A DNA stretch of 35,716 nt from the NCBI GenBank assembly GCA_021793215.1, contig JAJYTE010000028.1, positions 1-35,716 of the forward strand. The letters run 5' to 3'. Both the position numbers and the translations under genes were made by a program. A model generated the notes under the pieces. The model did not search any database. It was not told the origin of the DNA and worked only from the letters and a program-made list of their open reading frames with translations. The first letter of the stretch is position 1; the number at the start of each line of letters is the position of its first letter. The stretch comes from Bacillota bacterium. Its GTDB lineage: Bacteria; Bacillota; Sulfobacillia; JAJZYS01; JAJYTV01. Below are positions 2,374-5,033 of the stretch, one piece after another.

Positions 2374-2406
2374 GGCCCTGAGAGGAGTTGCCTCTCAGGG
2401 CCTTTT
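2374..2406 (+). terminator. Rho-independent terminator
   Basis: A perfect 12-bp stem (GGCCCTGAGAGG pairing with CCTCTCAGGGCC) with a 5-base loop is followed by TTTT. It lies 4 bases after the stop of the alpha/beta hydrolase and would end the aminotransferase-hydrolase transcript. There is no A-run on the other side, so it is not obviously bidirectional. Confidence 0.9.
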
Positions 2407-2436: not shown

Positions 2437-2793
2437 CTACTTGGGCCGGGACGCGACGGCGCGCGCCTGGGCGAAGCGGATCAACGCCGCTAGTGCCGCG
2501 ATGAGTAGTATCGTCCACCAAGCGAGGTGCAGGTACTCGAAGCTGAAGGTGACCGCCACGACGCCGCCCAGCCACTCGCCAACCAGACGGACGGCGGGAC
2601 CCGCCGGGCTCTCGAAGGGAAGCAGGGTTGGAATTGCGGCGACACCGAGAATGCCTGCCAACACTGCAGTGAACGAGTGGTGGAAGAGGTGGAGCGCACC
2701 GAGCACGATCAGCAACATCAGCGAAACCGTCGCCAGCGCACGCGCGAATGCGTTCCAGAGTTCCTGCGACGACGTCGTGGGCTGGTCCCCCAA
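2437..2793 (-). CDS. small multi-pass membrane protein, last gene of the Cys-rich peptide cassette
   Basis: A 118-residue protein with about four hydrophobic segments (around residues 15-37, 39-58, 72-87 and 88-107) separated by short polar turns, and a basic tail. The start is TTG 2793 with GGGGGTGAG upstream. I do not recognise the family. It is the third gene of a same-strand group with the exported Cys-rich peptide (3579-3902) and a membrane thioredoxin-like protein (2867-3565), from which it is separated by 73 bp. By position it could be an immunity, export or quinone-linked redox partner for the peptide system; that is inference only. The segment SFEYLHLAWW is rich in aromatic residues. 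Confidence 0.6.
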   Translation of the reverse strand: MGDQPTTSSQELWNAFARALATVSLMLLIVLGALHLFHHSFTAVLAGILGVAAIPTLLPFESPAGPAVRLVGEWLGGVVAVTFSFEYLHLAWWTILLIAALAALIRFAQARAVASRPK

Positions 2794-2866
2794 CTGCGCT
2801 CACCCCCACGTTTGTAGGCTGAGGCGTGTCCCAACGGAGACGCGCCAGCCGCCGGCGGGGCGGACG

Positions 2867-3565
2867 TCACGAGCCCCGCGCAGACTTGATTCTTTGGGCC
2901 AACTGGCTGAGCGTCATGCCGCCTTGGGACGCCCACACGACGGCCCCTTGCGCGTTCAGAACCGCGACCGTCGGGAATCCGGTGACCTTCCACGCCGCTC
3001 GCGTGGCCTGCGGCGCGACGTAGGCGCTGACGCCTGGATCCCCGCTGAGATCGTACTCCACCATGTACTGTTGGAGAACGGCCTCCATCCCCGCCACGTC
3101 GACTGGGGGTGGGGAGGTGGCGTCAGACCCGTGGAACGGTGGAGTGGGTGGACCCGGATCGGCGATGCCGCCAGACGGGCTGACATCGACGATGTCCACC
3201 CGAACGCCTCGCATCCTCGCCACCTTCGGGACGACCCACCGGTCCATGTAACCACAGTACAAGCACCATGTTGCCATTGCGATCACGACAGTCGCCTTGC
3301 GCCCGATCGCGAGATGCGTGGACTTTCCCTGGAGGGTCAGGAGGGACGCGCCGAGCAGCCCCCTCGCCCCGACGGTGAAGGGTCCGGTCTGCTGAGGCGC
3401 GCTGGCGGCGCGAGTGCCGGCGCTGGATGCGACGGGCGCCGTGAGGCGCCCCGCCGCGAACCCGGTAGCTGCTGCGGCCCATGCGAGCAGCACCGCCGTG
3501 ATCACCAGTTGCGTGAGACCGAACGTCACCTGCTTGCCCGACGCGCCCTCCGCGCTGCTGGCCAT
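2867..3565 (-). CDS. membrane-anchored thioredoxin-like protein
   Basis: A 232-residue protein with a single N-terminal membrane anchor (about residues 16-38), a short linker, then a thioredoxin-like domain outside the membrane. The redox motif is WCLYC with Cys101 and Cys104, followed by GYMDRWVVPK, and the cis-proline loop is probably TGFPTVAV near the C-terminus. A Pro/Gly-rich insert (SGGIADPGPPTPPFHG) sits between them. The start ATG 3565 has GGGAAG upstream. It begins 13 bp after the gene for an exported eight-cysteine peptide, so the obvious inferred role is forming, isomerising or reducing that peptide's disulfides. The family is broad (TlpA/DsbA/SoxW-like), and the redox direction cannot be told from sequence. 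Confidence 0.75.
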   Translation of the reverse strand: MASSAEGASGKQVTFGLTQLVITAVLLAWAAAATGFAAGRLTAPVASSAGTRAASAPQQTGPFTVGARGLLGASLLTLQGKSTHLAIGRKATVVIAMATWCLYCGYMDRWVVPKVARMRGVRVDIVDVSPSGGIADPGPPTPPFHGSDATSPPPVDVAGMEAVLQQYMVEYDLSGDPGVSAYVAPQATRAAWKVTGFPTVAVLNAQGAVVWASQGGMTLSQLAQRIKSARGS

Positions 3566-3578
3566 GCCGCTTCCCAGT

Positions 3579-3902
3579 TCAGGGGGTCGGGCACGGCTCG
3601 TAGGCCCAGGTCGTGCACTCCTGGTAGCCAGGCACGTAGCAGGCCCCGTAGGCGGCCGCAAGGCAAGCGGCTCTTGCCGCCGGCGTGCCGAGGCTCGCAA
3701 CGGAGCAGCCCGCGCTTGCGATGGCGTAGCACGTCCAGTCCTCGTGCCCTGGGTAGGTCTGGTACTGGGTGCAGACGCTGCAAAGGCCGGTCGGCGGAAC
3801 ATTGGGCGACGCAGCGGAGCCCTTGGCACTTGCGACGGCCGCCACCGACGCCAGCAAGGCCGCGGCTGCCGCGAACGCGGTAATGAACATTCGAATCCGC
3901 AC
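3579..3902 (-). CDS. exported cysteine-rich small protein (possible bacteriocin-like peptide)
   Basis: A 107-residue precursor with a clear signal peptide: MRIRM, a hydrophobic core to about residue 24, and an AVASA cleavage site near 26. The mature part of about 80 residues has eight cysteines (41, 44, 58, 66, 80, 88, 96, 104) and Ala/Gly-rich helices between them. An even cysteine count in an exported peptide implies disulfides. The pattern, beginning with CxxC and then GC in a small-residue helix, is loosely reminiscent of the halocin C8-like group, but I cannot establish homology. The start GTG 3902 has an excellent GGGAGGGAGG SD, and a near-consensus promoter lies just upstream. First gene of a three-gene cassette with a thioredoxin-like protein and a small membrane protein. 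An alternative is a structural or spore-surface protein. Confidence 0.72.
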   Translation of the reverse strand: MRIRMFITAFAAAAALLASVAAVASAKGSAASPNVPPTGLCSVCTQYQTYPGHEDWTCYAIASAGCSVASLGTPAARAACLAAAYGACYVPGYQECTTWAYEPCPTP

Positions 3903-3923
3903 GATTCCTCCCTCCCCAAATTA

Positions 3924-3952
3924 TGTATAGACAAATACAGAATCTCTGTCAA
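3924..3952 (-). promoter_or_regulatory. SigA-type promoter of the Cys-rich peptide cassette
   Basis: On the minus strand TTGACA (3947-3952) and TATACA (3924-3929) are separated by 17 bp, close to the vegetative consensus. It sits in an AT-rich island within very GC-rich DNA, a few bases before the GGGAGGGAGG ribosome-binding site of the gene starting at 3902. Confidence 0.75.
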
Positions 3953-3995: not shown

Positions 3996-5033
3996 TCAGC
4001 GGACGTAGATCGGGTTCGTGTAGGCCCAGGGGCAGAGCCTGCGGCCGGATCTCGCGCGCAGTTCCGCGCGGTAGACCCCGGGGCCCTCGACCTTGGCGGC
4101 AGTTTCCCGGCCGAAGGTCTGGATGATCTTCCGGCCATCGCGCAGCAGCCGAAGCTCTGCCTCCTGCGGCGACGAGAGCGCGATGTCGAGGTTCGGGGCG
4201 AACGCGATCTCGTCGCCCATCGCCGCCACCTCGCTGCCGGCCGCGTCGCGCACCTTCAGGGAGAGCCCCCTGGGGTCGCCCATCGCGTGGTTCGCGAAGA
4301 ACAGGTGGCCGGCCGCGACCGCAGAGAGCCAGACGGACTTCGCTTCGTCCGCCGACGCCGGCCATGCGGGCACCAGCACGTGGCAGAGGATGCTCCCGAA
4401 CGCGAACGGGTAGGGGAAGAGCCGCACCTTCAGGGGGCCCTTGCCGATCTGCACGTCGTGAACGTCGAGACCGCCGATCCCGACGACCCTGCGCGCACGT
4501 CCCGCCTCGTCCCAGAGCGAGAGCGTTTCGGGCTCTGGCCCCCGGAGGAAGCGGTGCGGCTTGATCGCACCGCGTAGCGCGCGCGGCAGCCCACGGATGC
4601 CACCGGACCAGTCGGAGAGGTGGTTCCAGATCTCGAGCCCGGTGTAGCGGTCGATCGGCCAGGCTTCCCAGCGGTAGGACGGGATCCTGGCGAGGGGAAC
4701 GCCGCGGTCGTGCGGGTGGGCGAGGAACGTGAGGGCGCCCTGTTCCCTGAGTTCGTCGATGTAGCCCTGCGGCGCCTGGTCACGCGAAGGGCAGGTCAGG
4801 GCACCTACAGTCAGAAGGTGGTTCGTTGGCGGGCTCACCTCGCAGCCGATCAGCAGCAGCGTCCTGCCGCGGAAGCCCTCGCCGACGTCATCGAGCGGCT
4901 TCAGCGTGTCGTGGTCGGTCATCACGAGGAAATCGAGTCCAGCGGCCTGCGCCGCCTGCAAGATCTCCGGGTAGGTGCCGGACCCGTCCGAGTAGGTGGA
5001 GTGGCCGTGGATCGCGCCGACGAGTTCCGTCAC
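3996..5033 (-). CDS. PHP-domain phosphoesterase
   Basis: A 345-residue metal-dependent phosphoesterase of the PHP superfamily. The metal-binding motifs appear in order: HGHSTYSDG at residues 9-17, TDHD near 40, a central GCE, AHPHD near 107, and GGLDVHD near 190. The C-terminal 100 or so residues form a beta-rich extension, as in the stand-alone PHP proteins that also bind membranes or carbohydrates. The start is GTG 5033 with GGGAGGG upstream. It stands alone: the promoter of the next minus-strand gene lies beyond its 3' end, and it is divergent from the Rrf2 gene. The substrate is unknown; nucleotide or histidinol-phosphate-like phosphoesters are known for relatives. Confidence 0.85.
   Translation of the reverse strand: MTELVGAIHGHSTYSDGSGTYPEILQAAQAAGLDFLVMTDHDTLKPLDDVGEGFRGRTLLLIGCEVSPPTNHLLTVGALTCPSRDQAPQGYIDELREQGALTFLAHPHDRGVPLARIPSYRWEAWPIDRYTGLEIWNHLSDWSGGIRGLPRALRGAIKPHRFLRGPEPETLSLWDEAGRARRVVGIGGLDVHDVQIGKGPLKVRLFPYPFAFGSILCHVLVPAWPASADEAKSVWLSAVAAGHLFFANHAMGDPRGLSLKVRDAAGSEVAAMGDEIAFAPNLDIALSSPQEAELRLLRDGRKIIQTFGRETAAKVEGPGVYRAELRARSGRRLCPWAYTNPIYVR

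What the first reader, a model, noticed from the sequence alone, without database searches (positions are those of the whole stretch)
2437..3952. Cassette for an exported eight-cysteine peptide with its own thioredoxin
A signal peptide-bearing precursor with eight cysteines, a membrane-anchored WCLYC thioredoxin-like protein and a small multi-pass protein are transcribed together behind a near-consensus promoter and a very strong SD. The logic fits a disulfide-rich bacteriocin or signalling peptide with dedicated maturation and possible immunity. A loose likeness to halocin C8-type peptides exists but is not proof.
Basis: partly seen in the sequence, partly recalled or inferred. Interest (0 to 1): 0.68.

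Follow-up and report, generated by a model that had tools for sequence, protein, structure and literature searches.

The report
Exported cysteine-rich peptide with dedicated thioredoxin
A bacterium of (probably) the Sulfobacillus class carries a small operon for an exported, disulfide-rich peptide of a kind not found in any other genome searched, together with a membrane-anchored thioredoxin that most likely shapes its disulfide bonds, which looks like a new bacteriocin-type or signalling peptide.

Summary
Three minus-strand genes follow a 10/12 promoter and a strong SD: a 107-aa precursor (signal peptide, then an 81-aa, 8-Cys domain), a TlpA/ResA-like membrane-anchored WCLYC thioredoxin 13 nt downstream, and a 118-aa, Cys-free membrane protein. 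The peptide is a real protein: a second, insertion-sequence-truncated copy of its domain lies elsewhere in the genome (57-59% identity, core dN about 0.18, dS about 1.7), but no third copy turned up in 154 class genomes, 398 phylum genomes, GTDB r220, IMG/VR, plasmids or phages. The thioredoxin belongs to a class-wide clade. Its sister (96/86 support), in a related genus, also follows an 8-Cys signal-peptide precursor, of unrelated sequence, beside an HTH-TPR regulator, a pheromone-like mini-gene and an FtsX-type ABC transporter. A search of 666 kb for signal-peptide/8-Cys mini-genes found only these, all directly upstream of that thioredoxin type. So "exported Cys-rich peptide plus dedicated oxidoreductase" is supported; the three-gene set is not (the membrane gene is an orphan), and the halocin C8 likeness failed its test. 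Best reading: a bacteriocin-like or signalling peptide matured as in the PedC/BdbA systems; its activity is unproven.

The parts
3924..3952 (-). promoter: -35 TTGACA (3952-3947), 17-nt spacer, -10 TATACA (3929-3924)
   Evidence: sequence; 10 of 12 consensus, one of two such sites in the window
3907..3917 (-). Shine-Dalgarno region GGGGAGGGAGG upstream of the GTG start
   Evidence: sequence
3579..3902 (-). precursor of the exported Cys-rich peptide, 107 aa, GTG start
   Evidence: ORF and codon usage; second genomic copy of its domain under purifying selection
3825..3902 (-). predicted signal peptide (residues 1-26, ...VASA|KG)
   Evidence: inferred from sequence: basic N-terminus, hydrophobic core, A-x-A; no dedicated predictor was run
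3582..3824 (-). predicted mature peptide, 81 aa, 8 Cys (spacing C2C13C7C13C7C7C7C), 8292 Da if all oxidised, pI about 4.8
   Evidence: low-confidence model with two helices carrying the two Cx7C pairs
2867..3565 (-). TlpA/ResA-like thioredoxin with N-terminal membrane anchor (helix 17-37); active site WCLYC at 3254-3268
   Evidence: (pLDDT 87.5)
2437..2793 (-). orphan Cys-free small membrane protein (3-4 hydrophobic segments), TTG start; possible immunity or helper protein
   Evidence: no homologue; membership of the operon uncertain
2374..2402 (.). 12-bp hairpin between the convergent operon end and the hydrolase gene, terminator-like (T tract on the + strand side)
   Evidence: z -3.9

Best explanation
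The operon makes a Sec-exported, disulfide-rich peptide of about 81 residues and a membrane-tethered, extracytoplasmic thioredoxin-fold oxidoreductase dedicated to it. Inferred mechanism: the precursor crosses the membrane by its signal peptide, which is cut after ASA; the oxidoreductase, anchored on the outer face of the membrane, introduces or corrects up to four disulfides with its WCLYC site; the oxidised peptide is released and acts outside the cell, most likely as a bacteriocin-like antagonist or else as a signal. The small membrane protein would protect the producer or assist, which is the weakest step. Shown here: genes, order, promoter, fold and anchor of the oxidoreductase (predicted), conservation of the peptide domain, recurrence of the peptide-oxidoreductase pair. 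Inferred: disulfide state, direction of the redox reaction, activity, immunity.
For: Close gene coupling and an own strong promoter. Second copy of the peptide core with dN about 0.18 and dS about 1.7. The sister thioredoxin (96/86 support) in G008/G006 is also preceded by an 8-Cys signal-peptide precursor; a 666-kb scan for such mini-genes gives only these three cases (two independent), all directly upstream of this thioredoxin type. The G008/G006 cassette adds an XRE-TPR regulator, a pheromone-like mini-gene, an FtsX permease and a LolD/MacB-type ATPase, and has a strong hairpin between peptide and thioredoxin genes, features usual in peptide-export operons. The thioredoxin models as TlpA/ResA/Mtb DsbF/SdbA fold with a TM anchor. 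Members of its clade sit beside VKOR, a disulfide-forming partner, in L069, L097, L099 and L064 and within 4 kb in three more loci. Known precedent: PedC raises pediocin potency, and BdbA and BlpGst are involved in disulfide formation of other bacteriocins (PMC4919988). Patchy occurrence of peptide and close-clade thioredoxin: 3 of 10 genomes of the family, none with only one of the two intact.
Against: The peptide of G008/G006 is not detectably homologous to the window's, so the pairing rests on two independent cases. The mature peptide is acidic (pI 4.8), unlike most bacteriocins. No exporter or proven immunity gene is in the window operon. No VKOR was found in this genome, so how an oxidase would be re-oxidised is unknown; TlpA/ResA relatives are often reductases. 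No bacteriocin family model matches the peptide.
Confidence: 0.45

Rival explanations
1. The peptide is a secreted surface, envelope or spore-associated structural protein rich in disulfides, and the thioredoxin is its folding helper; no antagonism is involved.
For: Acidic, non-cationic mature peptide; no exporter; the nearest structural kin of the thioredoxin include StoA, a spore-related oxidoreductase.
Against: A structural protein would be expected to be conserved among relatives, but the peptide is absent from all nine other genomes of its family and everything else searched. No spore or envelope family matched.
Confidence: 0.2
2. The peptide is a secreted metal- or redox-active protein (CxxC and PGHEDW ligands), kept reduced or recycled by the thioredoxin, for instance in metal or oxidative stress.
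For: CxxC plus conserved His/Glu/Asp in the core; TlpA/ResA-type proteins often act as reductases; the likely relatives live in metal-rich acidic places (general knowledge of Sulfobacillus).
Against: No metal-stress genes in the operon or in the G008 cassette; the latter's peptide has no PGHEDW motif; VKOR neighbours point to oxidation for the clade.
Confidence: 0.15
3. The peptide is an intercellular signal, in the way of a large pheromone, rather than a killer.
For: The sister cassette lies next to an HTH-TPR regulator and a pheromone-like mini-gene.
Against: There the small Cys-free mini-gene, not the 8-Cys peptide, is the natural pheromone; the window genome lacks the regulator.
Confidence: 0.12
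4. Chance neighbourhood: a lineage-specific secreted peptide next to a class-wide thioredoxin that serves many substrates.
For: Most members of the thioredoxin clade have no Cys-rich peptide nearby.
Against: 13-nt spacing in one operon; sister thioredoxin again paired with an 8-Cys precursor; only such mini-genes in 666 kb.
Confidence: 0.08

Closest known systems
Pediocin PA-1 operon (pedABCD; PedC thiol-disulfide oxidoreductase)
   Same: small exported Cys-containing peptide with an extracytoplasmic thioredoxin-fold protein in the same operon that is thought to improve disulfide pairing (PMC4919988)
   Different: pediocin has 4 Cys, a double-glycine leader and an ABC exporter with peptidase (recalled); here a Sec-type signal peptide, 8 Cys, no exporter, and a TlpA/ResA-like rather than PedC-like protein
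Sublancin 168 (sunA, bdbA, bdbB) and other glycocins with thioredoxin-like partners (thg, org clusters)
   Same: dedicated oxidoreductase encoded with a Cys-rich peptide; OrgA also has eight Cys (PMC12457901)
   Different: glycosyltransferase and PCAT transporter are missing here; no sequence relation found
Halocin C8-like domain (TIGR04449)
   Same: exported Cys-rich peptide beginning with a CxxC (recalled)
   Different: model has no match in the window genome at E <= 1
TlpA/ResA/DsbE-type thioredoxins (ResA, Etrx1/2, Mtb DsbF, SdbA)
   Same: fold, CxxC, cis-Pro, membrane tether
   Different: own clade with a conserved GGIxxPGPxxPPFxGxDxxG stretch after the second strand; best solved matches only about 20% identical
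VKOR-thioredoxin disulfide-forming pairs
   Same: clade members adjacent to VKOR in several genomes of the class
   Different: no VKOR in the window genome

Membership tests
Halocin C8-like bacteriocin domain (TIGR04449) | match to the family model above its 24-bit cut-off | tested here: not met
   no match at E <= 1 in G000 or 40 relatives; control genomes ring; not in hmmscan
TlpA/ResA-like extracytoplasmic thioredoxins | thioredoxin fold with CxxC and cis-Pro | tested here: met
   model pLDDT 87.5, Foldseek top hits include ResA, Etrx2, DsbF, TlpA; C101, C104, P198 invariant
TlpA/ResA-like extracytoplasmic thioredoxins | N-terminal membrane anchor or lipobox | tested here: met
   helix 17-37 in the model; lipobox-like start in L069
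TlpA/ResA-like extracytoplasmic thioredoxins | passes curated Pfam/NCBIfam cut-offs | tested here: not met
   Thioredoxin_2, TraF, ResA models match below cut-off; placement rests on fold and profile
Bacteriocin operon with dedicated oxidoreductase (PedC/BdbA kind) | exported Cys-rich precursor beside a thiol-disulfide oxidoreductase gene | tested here: met
   window and G008/G006
Bacteriocin operon with dedicated oxidoreductase (PedC/BdbA kind) | cognate exporter | tested here: not met
   none in the window operon; an FtsX-type ABC pair is present in the G008 cassette
Bacteriocin operon with dedicated oxidoreductase (PedC/BdbA kind) | immunity gene | tested here: inconclusive
   118-aa orphan membrane protein, no homologue
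Bacteriocin operon with dedicated oxidoreductase (PedC/BdbA kind) | antimicrobial activity of the peptide | not testable with these tools
   needs expression and an inhibition assay

The most novel reading that the evidence does not exclude
A new family of Sec-exported, twin-Cx7C, four-disulfide antagonistic peptides in Sulfobacillia, each matured by a co-inherited clade of TlpA-like oxidoreductases; in sister genera the same slot holds unrelated 8-Cys peptides under peptide-pheromone (HTH-TPR) control.
Probability: 0.3. Interest if true: 0.62.

Novelty: new variant of a known kind. Interest (0 to 1): 0.45.

Why it matters
If true, it adds an orphan disulfide-rich peptide scaffold and a clade of thioredoxins that marks such peptides, so that one can find more of them by searching beside this clade, in a class of bacteria (Sulfobacillia) for which I know of few described bacteriocins or peptide signals. 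It also gives a testable case of a dedicated disulfide catalyst in an organism without VKOR.

Tried and rejected
Halocin C8 membership: rejected. Prophage, plasmid or defence origin: no PHROG or PADLOC match for any of the three proteins, and no plasmid or phage hits for the peptide. Wider homologues of the peptide: none in GTDB r220 by pattern scan, IMG/VR, 154 class and 398 phylum genomes; weak hits have low scores, many with internal stops, and were discarded. Close relatives of the thioredoxin in genome contigs by pattern scan: none, although genome search found many, so that pattern scan misses relatives at about 50% identity. Membrane protein: weak SdpI and Presenilin matches are far below cut-off, and it is no VKOR (no Cys). 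Peptide structure: mean pLDDT 55.6, not used for a fold search. Insertion at a fixed site: the PHP-IscR block is conserved in eight relatives, all without the cassette next to it, but the other flank is not syntenic, so no exact empty site was defined.

Full report
What is there. Three genes lie on the minus strand at 3902-2437 between a PHP-domain gene (3996-5033, same strand; Pfam) and a convergent alpha/beta-hydrolase gene (about 1491-2369). The first encodes a 107-aa precursor with a typical signal peptide (MRIRMFITAFAAAAALLASVAAVASA) and an 81-aa remainder with all eight cysteines in the pattern C2C13C7C13C7C7C7C. The second, 13 nt on, encodes a thioredoxin-like protein with a transmembrane N-terminus and WCLYC. 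The third, 73 nt on, has a TTG start and encodes a 118-aa, cysteine-free membrane protein. Each ORF is the best of six frames by codon usage. The promoter is TTGACA-17-TATACA followed by a strong SD.

Reality of the peptide. A search of the whole genome (G000, 2.74 Mb, 97.7% complete) found a second copy of the mature domain on another contig (C14:18270-18452, 57% identity; 59% over the domain). In the core (PGHEDW..CYAIASA.C....TP..RAACLAA.Y..CYVPG) codon positions 1 and 2 agree at 80 and 85%, position 3 at 41%; dN is 0.17-0.19 and dS, where it can be estimated, about 1.7. The core was therefore under purifying selection. That copy has lost its signal peptide; it lies among transposon remains (an intact-looking ISL3 transposase nearby; a transposase-like fragment directly upstream, by eye), with no thioredoxin next to it. 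I take it for a relic.

Distribution. No other homologue of the peptide was found: 154 genomes of the class, 398 of the phylum, the GTDB r220 pattern scan, IMG/VR, plasmids and phages. It has no family in Pfam, NCBIfam or PHROGs.

The thioredoxin. It belongs to a clade found in 48 of 154 class genomes if its more distant members are counted. An alignment of 25 members shows invariant W-C-x-x-C, a cis-Pro and a clade-specific GGIxxPGPxxPPFxGxD stretch. The predicted structure (pLDDT 87.5) matches TlpA/ResA-type proteins: ResA, Etrx2, M. tuberculosis DsbF, S. gordonii SdbA. In a maximum-likelihood tree the window protein is sister to that of G008, a genome of a related genus, with 96/86 support. 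The second, more distant thioredoxin of the genome (C39) stands between unrelated housekeeping genes.

The recurring pair. In G008, and in the 94-98% identical locus of G006, the sister thioredoxin is again directly preceded by a signal-peptide precursor with eight cysteines (GTVHPNMAPSCCLENVCVGTEVCNSVTCYCSGTWECTDWGACPIG). The sequence is unlike that of the window apart from a tail rich in Cys and Trp, and searches do not link them. A scan of 666 kb of fetched loci for small ORFs with a hydrophobic N-terminus and at least eight cysteines behind it found three: the window's, G008's and G006's, each immediately upstream of this thioredoxin type. The loci were chosen for the thioredoxin (and the window for the peptide), so this is not an unbiased sample; the independent evidence is the G008/G006 case. 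No genome of this family (f1) has the close-clade thioredoxin without such a peptide; in the rest of the class most members stand alone.

What the sister cassette adds. Around the pair in G008 lie an XRE-TPR regulator, a divergent 50-aa mini-gene ending NPHDNGPGDPGPF, an 842-aa FtsX-type permease and a LolD/MacB-type ATPase, and a strong hairpin between the peptide and thioredoxin genes. Related regulators in sister genomes have similar mini-genes with an NGPG(D/G)PG-like motif. This arrangement suggests density-controlled production of the peptide and an ABC transporter for export or self-protection. The window genome lacks this regulator.

Direction of the redox reaction. Other members of the clade sit beside VKOR, which re-oxidises disulfide-forming thioredoxins, in four loci and within 4 kb in three more. 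This favours oxidation. Against it, no VKOR was found in the window genome, and TlpA/ResA kin are often reductases. Isomerase or oxidase with another electron acceptor remain possible.

Mechanism and standing. I commit to an exported, disulfide-rich, bacteriocin-like or signalling peptide with a dedicated membrane-tethered oxidoreductase, working like PedC with pediocin PA-1 or BdbA with sublancin (PMC4919988; PMC12457901). It is not filed as a member of those families: there is no exporter in the operon, the oxidoreductase is of another type, and the peptide is unrelated. The halocin C8 idea was tested and failed. The membrane gene as immunity gene is a guess; it has no homologue.

Noticed in passing
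L121:2188-3577 (G008:C440); L145:4946-6338; L146:4549-5977; L147:4414-5834; L148:2824-4244: Family of XRE-TPR (RNPP-like) regulators, each with a divergent signal-peptide mini-gene whose tail carries N(G/A)PG(D/G)PG(P/T)(F/L): a candidate peptide-pheromone quorum-sensing system of this bacterial family. Absent from the window genome.
   Followed up: partly
L146:812-4812 (G003:C88): One such regulator locus is followed by two thioredoxin-like proteins (TRCTPC, PTCPIC), a MauE-type membrane protein and an ABC exporter: another possible peptide-maturation operon.
   Followed up: partly
L069:3943-5026, L097:3883-4987, L099:3860-4963: VKOR directly beside a thioredoxin of the same clade, a probable disulfide-forming pair in this class.
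   Followed up: partly
L101:3771-4037 (G100:C100): A small secreted protein with a Gly-rich two-cysteine tail sits about 110 nt upstream of a distant member of the thioredoxin clade; maybe a third peptide-thioredoxin pair.
   Followed up: no
L023:4585-5105 (G000:C14): Next to the truncated peptide copy: a Phd-like antitoxin reading frame and a PIN-like toxin frame cut by an ISL3 element, by eye.
   Followed up: no
window:3926-3952: The spacer between -35 and -10 holds a perfect ACAGA-gat-TCTGT inverted repeat, a possible operator.
   Followed up: no
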